DNA from: Sphingomicrobium sp.
GTDB lineage: Bacteria > Pseudomonadota > Alphaproteobacteria > Sphingomonadales > Sphingomonadaceae
Reading direction: 5' to 3'
Assembly: GCA_036563485.1 (NCBI GenBank)
Contig: DATCMI010000001.1
Span: forward strand, 1,985,501 to 2,049,500
DNA: 64,000 nucleotides
Part shown: one piece after another, positions 21,684 to 50,999 of the stretch
Numbering within the stretch: position 1 is the stretch's first letter
Layout: each line of letters starts with the position of its first letter
Notes under the pieces: generated by a model
What the model was told of the DNA's origin: nothing
The model's database searches: none
What the model saw: only the letters and a program-made list of their open reading frames with translations
Translations under genes and position numbers: made by a program

Positions 21684-23192
21684 ATGGCTGCGACCGTCGC
21701 CACCGTCGCATATCTCGGCCTCGAAGCGCGCGGCGTCGAGGTCCAGGTCCAGCTGTCGTCCGGCCTTCCGGCCTTCATCATCGTCGGGCTTCCGGACAAT
21801 GCCGTCCGCGAGAGCCGCGAGCGGGTGAGGGCGGCGCTTGCCGCCATCGGCCTCGCCCTCCCGCCCAAGCGGATCACGATCAATCTGTCGCCCGCTGACC
21901 TGCCGAAGGAAGGGTCGCATTACGACCTGCCGATCGCCTTGTGCCTGCTCGCGGCCATCGGTGCAACCGATGCCGAAGCGTTGTCCCACTATGTCGCCGT
22001 CGGTGAGCTGTGTCTGGATGGGCGCATCACCGCGTCGCCCGGCGTCCTTCTCGCCGCGCTCCACGCCTCCTCAGAGGACAAGGGCCTGATCTGCCCGGCC
22101 GCGCAGGGCAGCGAAGCGAGCTGGGCAGGGCAGCTCGACGTCATCGCCGCGCCGGACCTGCTGGCACTACTCGCGCATCTAAAGGGCACCAGCCTCGTCC
22201 CGCCGCCTCCAGCCGCGGACGCGGAGGCTCCGGACGGCGGACCCGACCTTGCGCAGGTCAAGGGGCAGGAGGTCGCCAAGCGCGCGCTCGAGATCGCCGC
22301 GGCTGGCGGCCACAATCTATTGATGAGCGGGCCGCCGGGCGCCGGCAAGTCGCTGCTTGCTGCCTGCCTGCCCGGCATCCTCCCGCCGTTGCAGCCGAGC
22401 GAGGCGCTGGAAGTCTCGATGGTCGCTTCGGTCGCCGGCGAACTGTCGAACGGCAAGATCCGCCGCCGCCGACCGTTCCGTTCTCCGCACCATAGCGCAT
22501 CGATGCCGGCGCTGGTCGGCGGCGGGCTGCGCGTGCGCCCGGGGGAGATCAGCCTCGCCCACTTGGGCGTGCTGTTCCTCGACGAGCTTCCCGAATTCCA
22601 GCGGCAAGTGCTCGATTCGCTTCGCCAGCCGCTTGAGACCGGCTCGGTCAGCGTCGCGCGAGCGAATACGCACGTGACCTTCCCCGCGCGCGTGCAGCTC
22701 ATCGCGGCGATGAACCCGTGCCGCTGCGGCCATCTTGGCGACCCGGCGCTCGCCTGCAGCCGGGCGCCGCGATGCGCCGCCGACTACCAGGCCCGCGTTT
22801 CCGGGCCGCTGCTCGACCGCATCGACCTGCATGTCGAAGTTCCCGGCGTCTCCGCTGCCGACCTCACGCTGCCGCCACCCGCGGAGGGAAGCGCCGAGGT
22901 CGCTGCCCGGGTCGCCAAAGCCCGAGCGCGCCAGGCGGAGCGCTATAACGGGCACGGGCCGCGCACCAATGCCGAAGCGGACGGCGAGTTGCTCGACCGC
23001 GTGGCGACGCCGGATGAGCCCGGGCGCAAGCTTCTCGCCGACGCCGCCGCGGCGATGCGGCTTTCAGCCCGCGGCTTTCACCGGGTCTTGCGCGTGGCGC
23101 GGACGATTGCCGACCTCGCGGGCTCCGAGCAGGTCGGCCGCATCCACGTCGCCGAAGCGCTCAGCTACCGGCGGCAAGCTCCGCGCAATTGA
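21684..23192 (+). CDS. comM: ComM/YifB family Mg-chelatase-like AAA+ ATPase
   Basis: 502 residues. ComM is a branch-migration helicase that helps integrate transforming DNA. N-terminal domain VATVAYLGLEARGVEVQ to SPADLPKEGSHYDLP, Walker A GPPGAGKS, Walker B VLFLDELPEF and the zinc-like AMNPCRCGHLGD are standard. ATG 21684 is preceded by GGGGGACGGGG. Its last 28 bases lie under the C-terminal extension of the prophage integrase frame on the other strand. Confidence 0.93.
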   Translation: MAATVATVAYLGLEARGVEVQVQLSSGLPAFIIVGLPDNAVRESRERVRAALAAIGLALPPKRITINLSPADLPKEGSHYDLPIALCLLAAIGATDAEALSHYVAVGELCLDGRITASPGVLLAALHASSEDKGLICPAAQGSEASWAGQLDVIAAPDLLALLAHLKGTSLVPPPPAADAEAPDGGPDLAQVKGQEVAKRALEIAAAGGHNLLMSGPPGAGKSLLAACLPGILPPLQPSEALEVSMVASVAGELSNGKIRRRRPFRSPHHSASMPALVGGGLRVRPGEISLAHLGVLFLDELPEFQRQVLDSLRQPLETGSVSVARANTHVTFPARVQLIAAMNPCRCGHLGDPALACSRAPRCAADYQARVSGPLLDRIDLHVEVPGVSAADLTLPPPAEGSAEVAARVAKARARQAERYNGHGPRTNAEADGELLDRVATPDEPGRKLLADAAAAMRLSARGFHRVLRVARTIADLAGSEQVGRIHVAEALSYRRQAPRN

Positions 23193-24892
23193 TTAGGCGC
23201 TCCCGCTCGCCTAGCTAGGCAGCACGCGCAGGGCCCCTGTGGCGGAATGGTAGACGCGCTCGACTCAAAATCGAGTTCCTTGCGGAGTGTCGGTTCGAGT
23301 CCGACCGGGGGTACCAACGGAACAGTACAGTCGGGCAGCTTGCCGCCCGCGACAGCGACCACGCTGGAGAGCAATCCGTGCACCTCGATCGAGGTGCCGA
23401 TCGTGCCTTGCCTGGGTGTGACCACGATGCGATCGATGAGGGCGCGGACGGCTTCGCGGGCGGCGGGCACGTCGTCGGCGGCGAGGGATCCGGTCAGGTC
23501 CGCGATTCGCTTGCGGTAGACGCCGGCGAGGCCGGGGTGGAGCGCGACGACCTTCTCGGCGGCGATCTCCGCCAGCTCGGCGTCGCAGCGGGCACGTTCC
23601 GCCTTGGCCTCGGCCAGCGGTTCGGCAATGTCCGACGCATCGATCCTGCCATCGGCGAGCGCCGCGATCAGGCGCGCGACGCGGGCGTCGGCATCGGCCC
23701 GCTTCCGTTCGATGCGCCCGCGGTCCTTGCGGCCGCGCTTCGCCTCCTCGGCCCAGGCGGCGCGATATTCCTCGACATAAGCGGCGACCAGGTCGGGGTG
23801 CAGAAGGCGCTCCGACAGGCCGGTCAGCACGCGCCGTTCGAACGATGCACGCGTGATCGTCCGCCCGTTGCCGCAGGTCAGGCCGTCGCGATGGTTGCCG
23901 CAGCCCCAGCGATCCTTGCCGACGACGCGCCAGGGGCCACCGCAGGCGCCGCACACGGCCTTCCCCGACAGCAGGTGGCGCGACCGCCGGACCGGCGCCT
24001 TGAGGCCGCCGGCATATCGCCGCAGCTGCGCCTGGGCAGCGTCCCACAAATCGTCGTTGACGATCCGCAGCTCGGGCACATCGACGATCGTCCATTCGCT
24101 TTCCGGGTTGATCCGCAGGGTCTTCCTGCGGCTGACCGGGTGCTGCACCTTGCGGGTGCGGTTGTAGATCAGCTTCCCGCGGTAAAGGTCGTTGCGGAGG
24201 ATGCCGTTGCGGCGCTCGGCATGGCCATGGACGGTGCTGATCCGCCACAGCCCGCCGCTGGGCGATGGCACTCCATGCGCGTTCAGCCCGGCGATCACGG
24301 CGCGAACGCTCCGCCCCTCGCCGATCTCCTCGAAGATGCGGCGCACGATCGCGGCCTGGTCCGGGTGGATTTCGCGAAGGCCGGGCACCGCCTGGCCCCG
24401 CTCGTCGAGGCGCCCGATCTTCCGGTAGCCGTAGGCCATGCCGCCGGGGTTCATGCGAGCAAGCGCTCGGCCGCGCTGACCGCGGCGGATATTGTGGGCG
24501 GTGTCCTTGCGCTGCTGCTCGTCGATCAGCGCCTTGACCGTGCCCTTGAAGCTGTCGAGCTCCCCATCGGCGAGGCTGAACAGGCGGGCACCGTGGAAGG
24601 TGAGCAGCTTGCGCAGGCGGTCGAAGTCGCCGAGGTCGCGAGCGATGCGGCTCGAGGTGTCGGCGAGCACCTGGTCGATGCCGCCGGCCTGGACGCACTG
24701 CAGCAGCGCGGACATGCCGGGCCGTTGCCCCTCGCCGATGCCGGCGCCGCCGCTGATCGCATAATCGGCAAAGACGTCGACGACGGTCCAGCCCTCGCGG
24801 TCGCAGCGGGCGCGGCAGTCGGCGAGCTGGTCGTCGATCGAGCGGTCGTTCTGAAGGTCGCTTGAAAACCTTGCGTAGATCAGGGTGCGCAT
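23165..24892 (-). CDS. Large serine recombinase (phage integrase), frame crosses attL
   Basis: 575 residues as integrated. Resolvase-like N-terminus MRTLIYARFSSDLQND with nucleophile Ser10, recombinase domain (AYGYRKIGRLD to RNDLYRGKL), a zinc ribbon CGACGG...CGNH...CGN, and a long coiled coil of about 90 residues. The frame has no stop before the attachment core, so the last 50 residues read the antisense of tRNA-Leu and end inside comM. In the excised circle the same frame would stop at 63608-63610 after 543 residues. ATG 24892 overlaps the preceding stop as TGATG. Confidence 0.92.
   Translation of the reverse strand: MRTLIYARFSSDLQNDRSIDDQLADCRARCDREGWTVVDVFADYAISGGAGIGEGQRPGMSALLQCVQAGGIDQVLADTSSRIARDLGDFDRLRKLLTFHGARLFSLADGELDSFKGTVKALIDEQQRKDTAHNIRRGQRGRALARMNPGGMAYGYRKIGRLDERGQAVPGLREIHPDQAAIVRRIFEEIGEGRSVRAVIAGLNAHGVPSPSGGLWRISTVHGHAERRNGILRNDLYRGKLIYNRTRKVQHPVSRRKTLRINPESEWTIVDVPELRIVNDDLWDAAQAQLRRYAGGLKAPVRRSRHLLSGKAVCGACGGPWRVVGKDRWGCGNHRDGLTCGNGRTITRASFERRVLTGLSERLLHPDLVAAYVEEYRAAWAEEAKRGRKDRGRIERKRADADARVARLIAALADGRIDASDIAEPLAEAKAERARCDAELAEIAAEKVVALHPGLAGVYRKRIADLTGSLAADDVPAAREAVRALIDRIVVTPRQGTIGTSIEVHGLLSSVVAVAGGKLPDCTVPLVPPVGLEPTLRKELDFESSASTIPPQGPCACCLARRAGAPNQLRGACRR
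23233..23316 (+). tRNA. tRNA-Leu(CAA), prophage attachment site
   Basis: 84 nt. Acceptor GCCCCTG pairs with CGGGGGT (one G-U), discriminator A, encoded CCA. Anticodon stem CTCGA/TCGAG with loop CTCAAAA gives CAA. The variable arm is long, as in a class II tRNA, and the T loop is TTCGAGT. The last 12 bases are within the 13-bp attL core, so integration leaves the gene intact. Confidence 0.95.
23305..23317 (+). repeat. attL core
   Basis: CCGGGGGTACCAA, overlapping the 3' acceptor end and CCA of tRNA-Leu. The identical 13 bases recur at 63652-63664 and flanking bases differ on both sides. Confidence 0.85.
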
Positions 24893-25176
24893 CAGCGCTC
24901 TTCCATGCTGCCGACGATCGGCGTCGAGCGGATCTCGCCGTTGCTTCGGTAGCGCAGGGCGGGCGTGCCGATGCCGACCAGGTCGACCGGCGTGCCAAGC
25001 AGGCTCATGTCGCCGACTGCCGTGAAGGTGTCGCCGGCGTCGATCGGCTGCCGCTCCTCGGCCGCGCGCTTGGTTGCCTCCCACAAATCGTCGGGCAGTT
25101 CCCATTCGACCGGCTCATCGCCGTTGGCGACGAGCATGTGCCAGCATTCGACTAAATCTTCGGGAGTGACCGCCAC
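24892..25176 (-). CDS. Small acidic phage protein of unknown function
   Basis: 94 residues, not recognised. Starts MAVTPEDLVECWHML and includes DEPVEWELPDDLWEATKRAA. No membrane segment. Directly upstream of the integrase with stop and start sharing a base (TGATG), so probably translated in step with it. Confidence 0.65.
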   Translation of the reverse strand: MAVTPEDLVECWHMLVANGDEPVEWELPDDLWEATKRAAEERQPIDAGDTFTAVGDMSLLGTPVDLVGIGTPALRYRSNGEIRSTPIVGSMEER

Positions 25177-26010: not shown

Positions 26011-26189
26011 CCCTTCGAAGCGCTAAGCCAGGCGGCGAGAAGCGCGAGGGCGACGATCACGAACCCGCCGAGGCGGTCCATCAACGACCGGCGCGGGCGG
26101 TGCCAGATGGCGTTGTGGCGGCTGTGGCGGCCGTCGCGGCCATCGTGGACCCACTGGTTGCGGCCCTTGAAGGTAACGCGCGCGTTCAT
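25998..26189 (-). CDS. Small single-span membrane protein
   Basis: 63 residues: basic N-terminal half, then LGGFVIVALALLAAWLSASKG, one membrane helix. Not recognised. Start overlaps the upstream stop (ATGA). Confidence 0.55.
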   Translation of the reverse strand: MNARVTFKGRNQWVHDGRDGRHSRHNAIWHRPRRSLMDRLGGFVIVALALLAAWLSASKGWHW

Positions 26190-26656
26190 GCCACATTCCT
26201 GAGCAGGCCGGTGTCGCGGAGGGTGTCGGCGATGACCTGGCCGGTTGAGCCGCCGCCGCGGCGGAGGCCGCGGGCTTCGGCGGCGTGGAGCTTGCGCAGC
26301 TCGGCCTCGAGCAGGACCGAGGCGACCTGCCGGTTCTTGAGCGCCTCGGCGCGGGCCGCCTGTTCCTTCAGCTTGGGCGAGAGGCGAGTGCGGCCGAACA
26401 GGTGCCGCTGAAGATCGGCAAGCTCGCGCTCCTCATCCTTCGTCAGCGGCGTGCCGTCGATCAGCGTCCATTCGTCGACGATCCGGAAGCTGCTGGCGCC
26501 GACCCGCAGCGGGAAGGCGATTGCAGCTTCACCCGAGGAAGTATCGCGGCGCTGCACGCGGACCAGCTCGGCACGCTGCTGGCTGACCGGCAGCGCCTCG
26601 TCGACGATCAGCGCGTAACTGCCAACCTGCGGGAATGGGGCGGGGACTCTGAGCAT
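26186..26656 (-). CDS. First gene of the leftward phage operon, unknown
   Basis: 156 residues starting MLRVPAPFPQVGSYALIVDEALPVSQQ, a beta-rich N-terminal part (VRVQRRDTSSGEAAIAFPLR) then a helical region rich in Lys/Glu/Ala. Not recognised. ATG 26656 follows AGGTCC and lies about 25 bases after a good promoter carrying an operator. Leads the operon that ends with the integrase. Confidence 0.62.
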   Translation of the reverse strand: MLRVPAPFPQVGSYALIVDEALPVSQQRAELVRVQRRDTSSGEAAIAFPLRVGASSFRIVDEWTLIDGTPLTKDEERELADLQRHLFGRTRLSPKLKEQAARAEALKNRQVASVLLEAELRKLHAAEARGLRRGGGSTGQVIADTLRDTGLLRNVA

Positions 26657-26681
26657 GGGACCTCCGTTCGGTTCGGAGGCC

Positions 26682-26710
26682 CTTATCTGTTGAACAAAAC
26701 AAACAGTCAA
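26682..26710 (-). promoter_or_regulatory. Leftward promoter with operator in the spacer
   Basis: On the minus strand TTGACT (26710-26705), 17-base spacer, GATAAG (26687-26682). The spacer plus one base is operator site 1, TGTT-N10-AACA, at 26688-26705. Occupancy would block the integrase operon, as expected of the prophage repressor. Confidence 0.65.
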
Positions 26711-26717
26711 GCGGCTG

Positions 26718-26757
26718 TGTTCGTTTTCTTCAACAAAGACAGGCGCGGTTCTATGGG
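26718..26757 (+). promoter_or_regulatory. Operator site 2 and possible rightward promoter
   Basis: Operator TGTT-N10-AACA at 26718-26735, centre exactly 30 bp from site 1. A possible rightward promoter TTCAAC (26729-26734), 17 bases, TATGGG (26752-26757) overlaps it and would drive the HIRAN gene. The promoter is weak by consensus. Confidence 0.4.
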
Positions 26758-26789
26758 GGTAAGGTCCTCGCGCTCGGAGAGGAGGGGCG

Positions 26790-27506
26790 ATGGGAACTTA
26801 TCCGATCGGGATCGTCGGTGAGAGCTTCAACAATGAGGACGGGAGCAGCCGGCAAGCCGAGCTAGCCCGCTGCAAAGACGGGGAGTCCGTCAGGCTGGTC
26901 CGGGATCCAGAGAATAGCCACGATGCGAACTGCGTGAAGGTGGTTTCGAAGCGTGGCGTCCAGATCGGCAACATCAGCCGCAGTGATGATTGGATCGCGT
27001 CGCGGATGGATTCCGGCAAGCCGATCACGGCGAAGATACTCAGCGTGGGCACGGGGGAGCGGAACCTGCTCGGCGCCGTGATCGAAGTCAGCACCGAAGA
27101 CGGAGACGTTGTGCACGGCGGTCAGAGGCGAACAGGATGCCTCGGGAGCTCGGCGGCAATCTCCGTCATTTTCATCGTCCTCGCTGCTGCGCAGGTGCAC
27201 GCGCTGCCGCTGCCGGACAAAGCGCCGCCCTTCGACATGAGCCGAATCGGCGAATTGCGGCGTCAACGATGCGCCGCCGAGTATCCAGACAGCTTCACGA
27301 TGCAGCGGCTGTGTCAGCAGGCGGAGATTGACGGCATGCGAAGGTTCCGGGACGCGAGCCAGCGGGTTGGGCGGCCGTTGAACAAGGCCCTTGAGCGTTG
27401 CGTCGAGGAATACACGACCGCCGGGATCCCGAACTTCACGCTCATTGGACTGTGCGCGCAGTCGGAAGCTGATTCCTACTTGGCCTTCAATCCTGAGCGC
27501 GGCTGA
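26790..27506 (+). CDS. HIRAN domain-transmembrane-cysteine-repeat protein
   Basis: 238 residues with three parts. Residues 3-100 resemble a HIRAN domain (IGIVGESFNNEDGSSRQAE, RDPENSHDANCVKV, VQIGNIS), a DNA-end or 3'-end binding fold. A membrane helix spans about 120-138 (SAAISVIFIVLAAAQVHAL). The C-terminal part has paired cysteines C161/C175 and C204/C222 in the pattern C-x3-[YW]-[PT]...C, also found in the gene at 50448-50999. The arrangement suggests a cytosolic N-terminus and an external C-terminus. ATG 26790 follows AGGAGGGG. Function unknown; a lysogen-expressed accessory role is inferred from its place beside the repressor. Confidence 0.72.
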   Translation: MGTYPIGIVGESFNNEDGSSRQAELARCKDGESVRLVRDPENSHDANCVKVVSKRGVQIGNISRSDDWIASRMDSGKPITAKILSVGTGERNLLGAVIEVSTEDGDVVHGGQRRTGCLGSSAAISVIFIVLAAAQVHALPLPDKAPPFDMSRIGELRRQRCAAEYPDSFTMQRLCQQAEIDGMRRFRDASQRVGRPLNKALERCVEEYTTAGIPNFTLIGLCAQSEADSYLAFNPERG

Positions 27507-27512
27507 GTGAGG

Positions 27513-28226
27513 TCAGAGCCGGCCCTTGACCCGGTGAATGCGGCGGACGCGAGCGATCGGCACGCGGAAGGTGCGGTCCGGATTGAACTGCTTCAGTTCG
27601 AGGAATGAGGCGCTCCGCTTCACCAACCGCTTGATCAGCACCATCGTCACGCGCCGTTCGAGATCGCCTTCGGCGTCCGGGTCAGTGAGCTGAACGACCA
27701 CATCGTCACCTGGCCGCACGGCGGCCTTGGGAGAGACGAATGCGTGCTCGCCGGGCTCGAACCGCGGTGCCATGGAGTCGCCGACGATCTCAATCGCGTA
27801 GGCCTCTTCGTCGTTGGCAAGGCTCGGCGGCCGCGCCAGATTGTCGAGCACCTCTGACAGGTTGAGCTCGGTCAGCTCGACGCCTTCCAGCTCTTCCCAG
27901 TCGCCGCCGAATGCGGTTCCGAGAAGTGGCACCGCCTTCGCCTGCGGCATGGACCATGCTGCGCGCGCTTCCTGCGGCGACATGCCGGTTCCGCGGACCT
28001 CGGTTCGAACCGGCGTGCGTCTTTCCTCGAAAGCGGCGCGACTGACGCCGATCGCGTCGAGCAGGCGGTCAATGGTCCTGTCGGTCGGGTTACCGTGTGC
28101 CCTGATGCCGTTGAAGATCGAGCGATGAATACCGGCGCGGGTCGCCCACTCGTTGTTCGACAGACCTGCCGGCCTCACCGCCATCAACGCAGCGTACACC
28201 GGATTGTCAGGTTCTGCCTCTGCCAT
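27513..28226 (-). CDS. LexA/CI-like phage repressor (S24 peptidase fold)
   Basis: 237 residues. N-terminal helix-turn-helix (SNNEWATRAGIHRSIFNGIR), linker, and C-terminal S24 domain with Ser151 in VGDSMAPRFEPGE and Lys199 in VLIKRL. The dyad suggests RecA-stimulated self-cleavage, although the usual Ala-Gly or Cys-Gly cleavage site is not evident. ATG 28226 is chosen; operator site 3 begins on this start codon, implying autoregulation and a very short leader. Divergent from the Cro-like gene. Confidence 0.88.
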   Translation of the reverse strand: MAEAEPDNPVYAALMAVRPAGLSNNEWATRAGIHRSIFNGIRAHGNPTDRTIDRLLDAIGVSRAAFEERRTPVRTEVRGTGMSPQEARAAWSMPQAKAVPLLGTAFGGDWEELEGVELTELNLSEVLDNLARPPSLANDEEAYAIEIVGDSMAPRFEPGEHAFVSPKAAVRPGDDVVVQLTDPDAEGDLERRVTMVLIKRLVKRSASFLELKQFNPDRTFRVPIARVRRIHRVKGRL

Positions 28227-28311
28227 GTTGTGAATATCCAACAAACAGGTCGGCGCGTCGATTGTGGATAAGTTCAACAAAGCCGCTTGACCTTGTTTAT
28301 TTTATGCAACA
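28226..28311. promoter_or_regulatory. Repressor/Cro control region with three operators and a DnaA box
   Basis: TGTT-N10-AACA occurs at 28226-28243 and 28294-28311; the middle site 28262-28279 has TTGT in place of TGTT and contains TGTGGATAA (28263-28271), a perfect DnaA box on the minus strand. TTGACC at 28287-28292 directly before site 5 mirrors the leftward promoter arrangement and is the likely -35 for the Cro-like gene; its -10 is weak. Confidence 0.6.
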
Positions 28312-28323
28312 TCAATCGCGCCC

Positions 28324-28569
28324 ATGGATGTTCCCACCCATGACGAGCTGATCGGCAGGATTGAGCGCTTCTGCGCCAGGCACAACCTTGCGGAGTCGGC
28401 ATTCGGTCGTCTGGCGCTTGGCAACAGCGCCTTCGTCAACGGACTGCGCCGGGACCCGCCGGTGTCGCCGACGCTCGACACCCTCAATCGCGTCGCCGAC
28501 TTCATGGCCGAGCGAGACGCCGAGGCCGAGCTCGCTTGCCGCGAGGAAGCGGCGCGGAGGGTCGCATGA
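28324..28569 (+). CDS. Cro-like helix-turn-helix regulator
   Basis: 81 residues. LIGRIERFCARHNLAES and AFGRLALGNSAFVNGLRRD form a helix-turn-helix of the type found opposite phage repressors in sphingomonad prophages. Starts 12 bases after operator site 5 with no clear ribosome-binding site, so the mRNA may be nearly leaderless. First gene of the rightward early operon; its stop overlaps the next start (ATGA). Confidence 0.7.
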   Translation: MDVPTHDELIGRIERFCARHNLAESAFGRLALGNSAFVNGLRRDPPVSPTLDTLNRVADFMAERDAEAELACREEAARRVA

Positions 28570-50281: not shown

Positions 50282-50451
50282 AACGGACGATCGTCGCGGC
50301 GCACCAACGCGAGGTGTTCCGGCGCATGGACAAGCTGAAAGGAAGCCCGGAGCCCTATCTCCGCAAGCTCCGCAAGCCGAAACGGCGTTCCGACCAGAGC
50401 CGCGAGTTGGCGAAGATGTTCGACCGAATGATCGAGCGGCAGCGGGGTTAG
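50098..50451 (+). CDS. Tail assembly chaperone extension (gpT-like, -1 frame)
   Basis: Up to 117 residues in the -1 frame of the preceding gene. Folded-looking sequence begins at EWDWFALLAVWCEEELGP and runs to RRMDKLKGSPEPYLRKLRK. Most likely made as a frameshift fusion; a GTG at 50098 also allows separate translation. The stretch GAAAACCC at about 50137-50144 is a candidate slip site but not a textbook heptamer. Confidence 0.6.
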   Translation: MAGDRGGDAAPDGRKPSEGGEWDWFALLAVWCEEELGPQDFWRESPRSFAVIVEATRRGKLERTIVAAHQREVFRRMDKLKGSPEPYLRKLRKPKRRSDQSRELAKMFDRMIERQRG

Positions 50452-50999
50452 GGGGCAGGATGAAGGGCGATCGAGGCCTTCAAGGAACAATTGCCGATAC
50501 CCGCCCAATTTGGCACGCCGTCGCTGGTCCATGTCGCCTGGCACCTGCGGAGATGAGGCTGGATGAGACTCCCCAACCGGCCGGCAAAAATGAATTGCTT
50601 TAGCCCGTTCATTTGGACTTTTTCGCAAGCGACCAACCCTTCCGGCGGGTCAGACGGATACCTCCTCTTGCAGTACAGCTTCATCACTTCGGCCTGTTCT
50701 GCGAGCAAATTGCTGTCGGCGGATCCGTGAAGCTCTCGGTATGAATCTTGTTGGTTCCTCGAACACGCGCCCGCCATCTGATAGTCTGTTTGGCCTCTCG
50801 GGTCGGTGTAGCGCCGTAAGCAAAGACCGAGAGCCCGCCGCAAATCCGGTGGCGCGTCTCGATAGATACGTTGCCAGTCGGCCCGGCCTTCGCGCTGATT
50901 GCGCTCGCATGCCGCTTGCATCTGGAAGTCGTCAGGCCACCGAGAGACGCAGTGCGGGCTTGCCGACACCAATAGTCCGCCGAGAATTACTCCGAACAT
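50448..50999 (-). CDS. Secreted cysteine-repeat protein (accessory gene)
   Basis: 183 residues. A hydrophobic N-terminus MFGVILGGLLVSAS suggests export. Four cysteine pairs (C17/C31, C60/C79, C110/C125, C153/C171) alternate two forms: C-x3-[WY]-P with 13-14 residues between cysteines and C-x3-[WY]-T with 17-18. The same two-repeat unit forms the C-terminal part of the protein at 26790-27506. Function unknown; probably disulphide-stabilised in the periplasm. Confidence 0.68.
   Translation of the reverse strand: MFGVILGGLLVSASPHCVSRWPDDFQMQAACERNQREGRADWQRIYRDAPPDLRRALGLCLRRYTDPRGQTDYQMAGACSRNQQDSYRELHGSADSNLLAEQAEVMKLYCKRRYPSDPPEGLVACEKVQMNGLKQFIFAGRLGSLIQPHLRRCQATWTSDGVPNWAGIGNCSLKASIALHPAP

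What the first reader, a model, noticed from the sequence alone, without database searches (positions are those of the whole stretch)
26790..27506. HIRAN domain joined through a membrane helix to an external cysteine-repeat domain
HIRAN domains normally occur in DNA-repair or remodelling proteins. Here one is tethered to the membrane and linked to a putative periplasmic disulphide domain, encoded beside the prophage repressor and under its own operator. Such an arrangement could sense incoming DNA at the membrane, a possible superinfection-exclusion or defence device.
Basis: partly seen in the sequence, partly recalled or inferred. Interest (0 to 1): 0.66.

Follow-up and report, generated by a model that had tools for sequence, protein, structure and literature searches.

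The report
Prophage HIRAN gene paired with repressor
A dormant virus in a bacterial genome carries, tail-to-tail with the switch gene that keeps it dormant and apparently under the same control, a gene whose protein joins a DNA-binding type of domain to a likely membrane segment and an exported domain, a layout that hints at a guard against rival viruses but is not proven to be one.

Summary
The ORF at 26790-27506 is real: an N-terminal HIRAN domain (Pfam above cut-off; predicted fold matches HLTF HIRAN), one hydrophobic segment, and a four-helix domain with two cysteine pairs whose relatives look exported. The membrane helix rests on hydropathy; the model leaves it disordered, and it could be a signal peptide with its own GTG start. 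The exact protein was not found elsewhere in the collections searched. Two viral contigs encode HIRAN-TM-exported proteins with another outer domain; others encode HIRAN with a membrane segment.

The firmer new result is gene order. The gene lies tail-to-tail, 6 bp from an S24 repressor, and a 16-bp element upstream recurs at the repressor promoter. In 10 of 19 viral loci of one HIRAN group, HIRAN is likewise convergent with an S24 repressor, and in 8 of those both upstream regions share an element; in 6 more it follows a repressor-like gene. The focal HIRAN lies outside that group's convergent clade, and none of 9 other viral loci shows such a repressor. HIRAN looks like a repressor-controlled immunity-region gene in the slot of lambda rexAB. 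Superinfection exclusion is the best reading, untested; tuning of induction is a close rival.

The parts
26790..27506 (+). HIRAN - hydrophobic segment - cysteine-pair domain protein, 238 aa
   Evidence: ORF with AGGAGG ribosome site; coding-like codon positions throughout
26790..27104 (+). HIRAN domain (residues 1-105)
   Evidence: Pfam PF08797 E=9.7e-11; beta-barrel model, pLDDT of the ten-residue blocks 68-91 up to residue 100; Foldseek to 4xzg and 3k2y
27111..27113 (+). possible internal GTG start (codon 108) with GGAG 5 nt upstream
   Evidence: 13 of 304 internal in-frame start codons in 15 other genes of the window have such a site; codon 183 of the focal ORF has one too
27135..27200 (+). 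hydrophobic segment (residues 116-137), membrane anchor or internal signal peptide ending QVHA
   Evidence: Kyte-Doolittle 2.14; 'GC' at its start as in L019, L033, L139, L144, L147 but not L146; not resolved in the model
27237..27488 (+). four-helix domain with two cysteine pairs (residues 150-233)
   Evidence: AlphaFold mean pLDDT 86.3; relatives 50448-50999, L069, L085, L086 start, by eye, with signal-peptide-like segments
27513..28226 (-). S24-type prophage repressor (likely start ATG 28226), convergent, 6 bp from the focal stop
   Evidence: Peptidase_S24 E=1.7e-8; phrog_4 transcriptional repressor E=2.9e-15
26679..26744 (.). inverted repeat upstream of the focal gene, operator-like
   Evidence: 27-nt arms, 78% complementary; best palindrome not matched in 100 shuffles
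26706..26721 (+). 16-bp element shared with the repressor upstream region; overlaps a terminator-like hairpin 26703-26718
   Evidence: Score not reached in 200 and 100 shuffles; in the window only this and 28276 within 3 mismatches of its letters; hairpin, where 2 were found and 2.0 expected
28276..28291 (-). second copy of the 16-bp element, upstream of the repressor (15 of 16 identical)
26186..26656 (-). divergent gene (likely start ATG 26656), unknown function
   Evidence: Resembles the gene following HIRAN in L133 (E=1e-6 in a single comparison)
28324..28569 (+). small rightward gene in the Cro position
   Evidence: Sequence and position only; no PHROG match at 0.001
50448..50999 (-). second gene of the window with the cysteine-pair domain (four repeats, signal-peptide-like start by eye)
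   Evidence: E=3.1e-6 and 1.0e-4 to the focal C-terminus; translation
23165..25105 (-). large serine recombinase, likely integrase, running over tRNA-Leu 23233-23316
   Evidence: Resolvase and Recombinase domains; tRNA

Best explanation
The gene is an immunity-region gene of the prophage. It mirrors the repressor: the two genes are convergent, and upstream of each lies the same 16-bp element, whose outward face carries TTGAC, as a -35 box of a leftward and a rightward lytic promoter would. By that symmetry the HIRAN gene is probably made in the lysogen under repressor control, in the slot where lambda keeps rexAB (that slot is recalled). Its product would hold a HIRAN domain in the cytoplasm at the inner membrane and a disulphide-bonded helical domain outside. 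Most likely it watches for nucleic-acid ends or structures of a superinfecting phage at the membrane and excludes that phage. Shown: the gene, its HIRAN family and predicted fold, gene order, shared element. Inferred: topology, repressor binding, -35 boxes, expression in the lysogen, DNA binding, exclusion.
For: HIRAN family and fold. Shared 16-bp element. HIRAN convergent with an S24 repressor in 10 of 19 viral loci (S24 confirmed by Pfam in L134, L135, L136, L138, L139, L140, and in L127 and L128, the genomic counterparts of L132 and L131), with a shared element in 8 of those 10. HIRAN directly downstream of a repressor-like gene in 6 more of the 19 (L133, L142, L144, L145, L146, L147) and in L004. 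In the family sample 8 of 57 HIRAN loci have a repressor-profile hit next to HIRAN, 4 convergent (L010, L011, L018, L060) and 4 upstream on the same strand (L015, L017, L020, L059). Membrane segment in 11 of 28 viral HIRAN proteins; HIRAN-TM-exported domain in L144 and L146; Imm_superinfect-HIRAN in L004. Candidate defence models PDC-M03B of PADLOC match the HIRAN part. [quoted passage not shown]
Against: No phenotype, expression or topology data. The membrane helix is not modelled. Of the HLTF residues N90, N91 and Y93 (PMC4666394, passages) the focal protein keeps only N91 (the place of Y72 is not covered). 9 of 10 repressor-convergent viral HIRANs have no membrane segment. The focal HIRAN falls outside the repressor-convergent clade, across a 99/99 branch, and the 9 other viral loci, drawn with queries nearer the focal HIRAN, show no S24 repressor by profile or motif (0 of 9); 49 of 57 family loci show none by profile within the 1.5 kb or less that is mostly held on each side. 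The 19 loci were drawn with a query that included L127 and L128, so the pairing is enriched by design; without L131 and L132, their counterparts, it is 8 of 17. L138 and L139 show no shared element. The focal element is not itself a palindrome, unlike those of the other phages, overlaps a terminator-like hairpin, and with a looser pattern a third copy at 3 mismatches appears, a total reached in 6 of 100 shuffles. A repressor-bound site could equally switch HIRAN off in the lysogen.
Confidence: 0.4

Rival explanations
1. Induction governor: HIRAN binds single-stranded DNA ends and tunes RecA-driven self-cleavage of the partner S24 repressor, so the pair is a lysis-lysogeny control module; the membrane and cysteine parts are add-ons of this phage.
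For: The partner is an S24 repressor; most of the convergent viral HIRANs have no membrane segment (9 of 10); HLTF and Rad5 HIRAN bind ssDNA (PMC4666394 and PMC7804152, passages); 434 Hex, from an ORF overlapping that repressor gene, blocks RecA-mediated repressor cleavage (PMC3564112, title and start of abstract in a listing).
Against: N90 and Y93 of HLTF are changed in the focal protein; does not explain the exported domain or the recurrent membrane segments.
Confidence: 0.27
2. Two products: the GTG at codon 108, or signal-peptidase cleavage after QVHA, yields a free exported cysteine-domain protein, while the HIRAN part acts alone. The gene is a fusion of two neighbouring immunity-region genes.
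For: GGAG 5 nt before GTG 27111, the only such site between HIRAN and the hydrophobic stretch; the stretch ends in a signal-peptidase-like QVHA (by eye); standalone exported-looking relatives exist, and L069 starts MHG as the internal start would; in L142 an S24 repressor, a HIRAN gene, an exported-looking protein and a second, weaker HIRAN (23.5 bits, cut-off 24.7) are separate genes in a row.
Against: Single ORF with a strong main start; a 'GC' boundary is shared with other HIRAN proteins that carry a membrane segment after HIRAN; 13 of 304 other internal starts have such a site, and so has codon 183.
Confidence: 0.18
3. Accidental fusion: a HIRAN gene ran into a secreted-protein gene and the joint protein has no joint function.
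For: Among 298 family and 71 genus genomes only the own one carries the full protein; 0 of 50,697 phage and 0 of 72,556 plasmid records cover 80% of it.
Against: Coding-like codon positions to the end; parallel HIRAN-TM-exported proteins in L144 and L146 with two invariant outer cysteines.
Confidence: 0.12

Closest known systems
HIRAN domain (Pfam PF08797; HLTF, Rad5, lp_0118)
   Same: Family score, predicted beta-barrel, N42 and D45 invariant in 18 aligned HIRANs, at the places of N91 and D94 of HLTF (numbering deduced)
   Different: No helicase or nuclease; membrane-like and exported parts; N90 and Y93 of HLTF changed
Lambda RexAB exclusion system
   Same: Lies between the repressor and the presumed operator on its far side; putative DNA-binding part plus membrane part
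   Different: Opposite strand to the repressor; one protein instead of two; no Rex match seen in Pfam or PADLOC, whose holdings of Rex models were not checked
Superinfection immunity protein (PF14373) fused to HIRAN, L004
   Same: HIRAN with membrane segments on a viral contig, next to a Cro/CI-type HTH gene
   Different: N-terminal membrane segments of a named family; no outer cysteine domain
PADLOC model PDC-M03B (phage defence candidate; the meaning of the name is recalled)
   Same: HIRAN part matches, E=1.1e-5
   Different: Only model positions 136-214 of 232 align
PHROG 27141
   Same: Focal E=3.2e-19; all six repressor-linked HIRAN proteins tested match too
   Different: Family of unknown function; the match covers only the HIRAN part

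Membership tests
HIRAN domain PF08797 | Score above the Pfam gathering cut-off | tested here: met
   41.8 bits against 24.7
HIRAN domain PF08797 | HIRAN beta-barrel fold | tested here: met
   Model residues 1-105; Foldseek to 4xzg E=1.9e-6, prob 1.00
HIRAN domain PF08797 | HLTF residues named for DNA stacking or function: Y72, N90, N91, Y93 | tested here: inconclusive
   N91 kept, N90 and Y93 changed (alignment; residues named in PMC4666394); the place of Y72 is not covered by that alignment
HIRAN domain PF08797 | DNA binding | not testable with these tools
   needs a binding assay
RexAB-type exclusion system | Sequence match to RexA or RexB | tested here: inconclusive
   Pfam lists only HIRAN at E up to 10, PADLOC only PDC-M03B; whether either library holds Rex models was not checked
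RexAB-type exclusion system | Gene between the repressor and the operator on its far side (feature recalled) | tested here: met
   Gene order and shared element; that the element is an operator is inferred
RexAB-type exclusion system | Expressed with the repressor in the lysogen | not testable with these tools
   needs RNA data
Imm_superinfect PF14373 | Pfam match | tested here: not met
   No match in the focal protein at E up to 10
PDC-M03B candidate defence protein | Match over most of the model | tested here: not met
   Only model positions 136-214 of 232 align; the four other window proteins scanned had no match; partner genes were not otherwise sought

The most novel reading that the evidence does not exclude
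HIRAN proteins form a widespread class of repressor-controlled immunity-region genes of temperate phages, recruited to the rexAB slot more than once, and the membrane-attached forms with swappable exported domains are one-protein Rex-like exclusion devices that link nucleic-acid sensing inside to a partner outside.
Probability: 0.3. Interest if true: 0.8.

Novelty: new variant of a known kind. Interest (0 to 1): 0.55.

Why it matters
HIRAN is known from eukaryotic fork remodelling, and the phage families it falls into here are of unknown function. A recurrent pairing with S24 repressors through shared operator-like elements gives it a testable place in the lysogeny switch, and the membrane-attached forms make a specific exclusion hypothesis testable with ordinary plating assays.

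Tried and rejected
More relatives of the cysteine domain: two DNA patterns and one protein scan of viral contigs gave nothing; tblastn of phage records gave only chance-level rows. With the profile A5 it was found in 2 of 226 genomes of the order (the own one and G420, whose protein is in the profile) and 1 of 220 of the class (the own one). Foldseek of the cysteine domain gave no match at E up to 0.001, and VIA-align rows up to Z 5.0 (a designed repeat protein; then T6SS immunity protein 4noo, Z 4.6, rmsd 4.6, 74 aligned) are no more than helical bundles give; no immunity-protein claim is made.

A repeat that could be the att site was sought and not found: only two 17-bp repeats, of chance look. 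A HIRAN tree of 41 rows did not place the focal protein; one of 35 rows puts it outside the repressor-convergent clade, though a short insertion shared by the focal side may weigh on that. A scan for more proteins like L144 and L146 returned only those two contigs. Set aside before the count of 57 family HIRAN ORFs (63 rows): the three rows of the own genome, L069 (cysteine domain only), L081 (no HIRAN) and L084 (stop inside). Of the 57, 2 have a C-terminal membrane segment (L019, L033) and 4 a basic amphipathic tail (L005, L010, L011, L027); these thresholds (Kyte-Doolittle 1.6; moment 0.6 with charge +2) were set after seeing the table, and start codons were taken as the first in the frame. 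Signal peptides were judged by eye; no predictor was at hand. Shuffles keep base counts only, those keep dinucleotides.

Literature searches with HIRAN: transmembrane/phage, superinfection, phage/membrane/bacteria, TerB, domain/bacterial/standalone, ssDNA/HLTF, prophage/repressor, lysogen/phage defense. In these listings I saw no title or abstract start about a HIRAN-repressor module or a HIRAN membrane protein; passages of six papers were looked for, one of which held no HIRAN in the stored text (PMC3482391).

Full report
Observation. The ORF 26790-27506 (+) codes for 238 residues. The first half is a HIRAN domain by Pfam (E=9.7e-11), by PHROG 27141 (E=3.2e-19) and by fold (AlphaFold, nine rows; Foldseek E=1.9e-6 to HLTF HIRAN and 4.4e-6 to lp_0118). 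One hydrophobic stretch follows (residues 116-137); the model leaves residues 107-148 below pLDDT 50 with no helix. The last third is a compact four-helix domain (mean pLDDT 86.3 from three rows) with two cysteine pairs. The same domain occurs in a second gene of the window, 50448-50999 (-), with four repeats, and in proteins of other genomes: L069 with two repeats, L085 and L086 with more. By eye all of these start with signal-peptide-like segments. The domain is rare: 2 of 226 genomes of the order and 1 of 220 of the class at E up to 0.001, each count including the own genome.

Membrane or signal peptide. The stretch TGCLGSSAAISVIFIVLAAAQVHA reads both as a short membrane anchor and as a signal peptide. 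A GTG at codon 108 has GGAG five bases upstream; 13 of 304 internal in-frame starts in 15 other genes of the window have such a site, and so has codon 183 of the focal ORF, so the internal start is only suggestive. In favour of an anchor, a 'GC' at the start of the segment recurs in L019, L033, L139, L144 and L147, though not in L146; in all six a membrane segment follows HIRAN.

Is the architecture conserved? The exact protein was not found elsewhere: only the own genome carries it among 298 family genomes (40 of 298 had any match) and among 71 genus genomes (2 of 71 had any match); no phage (of 50,697) or plasmid record (of 72,556) covers 80% of it. But HIRAN with a membrane segment is recurrent: 11 of 28 viral loci by hydropathy of 1.6 or more (L004, L092-L095 which are near-identical, L096, L139, L144-L147; HIRAN in L096 is below the Pfam cut-off). 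L144 and L146 are HIRAN-TM-exported proteins with a different outer domain holding two invariant cysteines, the closest parallels. L004 joins HIRAN to the Imm_superinfect family (PF14373 E=1.4e-16). Of 57 HIRAN ORFs from the family sample, 2 have a C-terminal membrane segment, 4 a basic amphipathic tail and 51 neither by my thresholds. Four of these six (L005, L019, L027, L033) form a clade (96/99).

Gene order. The focal gene and the S24 repressor are convergent, 6 bp apart. Nineteen viral loci were drawn with a HIRAN alignment that included L127 and L128, whose HIRANs I had already seen to be convergent with S24 repressors, so this set is enriched by design. In 10 of 19, HIRAN is convergent with an S24 repressor (L131, L132, L134-L141; the ORFs overlap by 8-110 bp or lie 1 bp apart); without L131 and L132, the counterparts of L128 and L127, it is 8 of 17. 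In 6 of 19 HIRAN directly follows a repressor-like gene on the same strand (L133, L142, L144, L145, L146, L147), and in 3 neither was seen (L143, L148, L149). S24 was confirmed by Pfam for L134, L135, L136, L138, L139, L140 and L142 and for L127 and L128; L131, L132, L133, L137 and L141 rest on a home-made profile. The HTH is firm for L142 and L145, weak for L147 (E=0.01) and L144 (PHROG 0.0081), and unmatched for L146. L140 and L141 are 98% alike and L148 and L149 identical over the matched stretch.

Controls for gene order. The same profile and an S24 motif found nothing in the 9 other viral loci (L004, L089-L096), whose HIRANs were drawn with queries nearer the focal one. In the family sample the profile hits next to HIRAN in 8 of 57 loci: 4 convergent (L010, L011, L018, L060; these four HIRANs form a clade at 100/99) and 4 upstream on the same strand (L015, L017, L020, L059, HIRANs with an acidic tail). 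Most of these loci hold only about 1.5 kb on each side, so this is a lower bound. Other settings: L089, L091 and the phage record L113 have HIRAN beside a tyrosine integrase, L004 after a Cro/CI-type HTH gene, L092 after an Arc-type gene.

Shared elements. Upstream of the focal gene, 26706-26721 matches 28276-28291 upstream of the repressor at 15 of 16 positions, in inverse orientation; no shuffle reached the score (0 of 200; 0 of 100), and no other place in the 64 kb is within 3 mismatches of its letters. With one position left open a third place at 3 mismatches appears, and 6 of 100 shuffles hold as many as three. In 8 of the 10 convergent viral loci a similarly strong element is shared by the two upstream regions (0-2 of 100 shuffles each; L131, L132, L134-L137, L140, L141); L138 and L139 show none (80 and 98 of 100 shuffles). 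By eye these eight are palindromic, such as GTGTGATACATCACAC; the sequence varies between phages (several share a GTGTG core) while both copies within a phage agree, as expected of operators. Copies elsewhere in those loci are few, and each lies about 60 bp from a repressor-side copy (L134, L135, L140, L141). In L127 and L128 the motif GTGTGN5TCACAC lies at the two upstream regions and nowhere else in 10 kb at up to 2 mismatches. The focal element is the weakest case: it is not a palindrome by itself, though it lies inside one, and it overlaps a terminator-like hairpin of a kind expected by chance.

Reading. The outward face of the focal element carries TTGAC on both sides, as for a leftward and a rightward lytic promoter; the HIRAN gene is then the mirror image of the repressor, in the slot of lambda rexAB (recalled), although on the other strand. 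[quoted passage not shown] I therefore favour a lysogen-expressed exclusion protein (0.4), with an induction governor next (0.27). The -35 boxes and the direction of control are inference; the promoter scan found no sigma-70-like site in 26100-28500. The focal HIRAN is not in the repressor-convergent clade, so either the slot was filled twice or the tree is misled by the insertion that the focal side shares. DNA binding is doubtful on residues: of N90, N91 and Y93 of HLTF (PMC4666394, passages) only N91 is kept, and the place of Y72 is not covered.

Known relatives. HIRAN membership is met by score and fold. No sequence match to Rex was seen, but whether those libraries hold Rex models was not checked. 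PADLOC's PDC-M03B models align over their HIRAN part only (E=1.1e-5). One phage paper places its HIRAN protein in a replication and repair module and calls its function unknown (PMC6469090, passages).

Verdict. A real gene with a rare but not isolated architecture; the strongest new evidence is the repressor-HIRAN pairing with shared elements. Function untested.

Noticed in passing
window 50448-50999 (-): A second gene of the window with the rare cysteine-pair domain, on the opposite strand upstream of the tape-measure gene, so probably expressed on its own.
   Followed up: partly
L142:2824-5336: S24 repressor, HIRAN, exported-looking protein and a second, weaker HIRAN in a row, like an unfused version of the focal gene.
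   Followed up: partly
L124:5276-7371 and L126:3810-9137: In two genomes a HIRAN gene with an amphipathic basic tail sits by a carboxyl-transferase gene, in L126 also an acyl-CoA dehydrogenase gene: a leucine-degradation-like setting. Only these three neighbours were scanned.
   Followed up: no
L092:4734-5993 and L093-L095: 419-aa proteins with N-terminal membrane segments, HIRAN and a weak TerB-like end (Pfam E=0.067, L092), right after an Arc-type gene in what looks by eye like a phage structural region.
   Followed up: no
L009, L012, L017, L056-L059 and others of the family sample: Many standalone HIRAN proteins end in an acidic tail of the type FWPDYIPPDD, which may mimic DNA or bind a partner.
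   Followed up: no
L015, L017, L020, L059: HIRAN genes of the acidic-tail group follow an S24-type gene on the same strand, a second HIRAN group next to repressors.
   Followed up: partly
L076, L077: HIRAN proteins preceded by a twin-arginine-like segment (by eye), suggesting exported HIRAN domains.
   Followed up: no
window 26186-26656 (-) and L133:5791-6060: The gene divergent from the focal one has a relative beside HIRAN in a viral contig; function unknown.
   Followed up: partly
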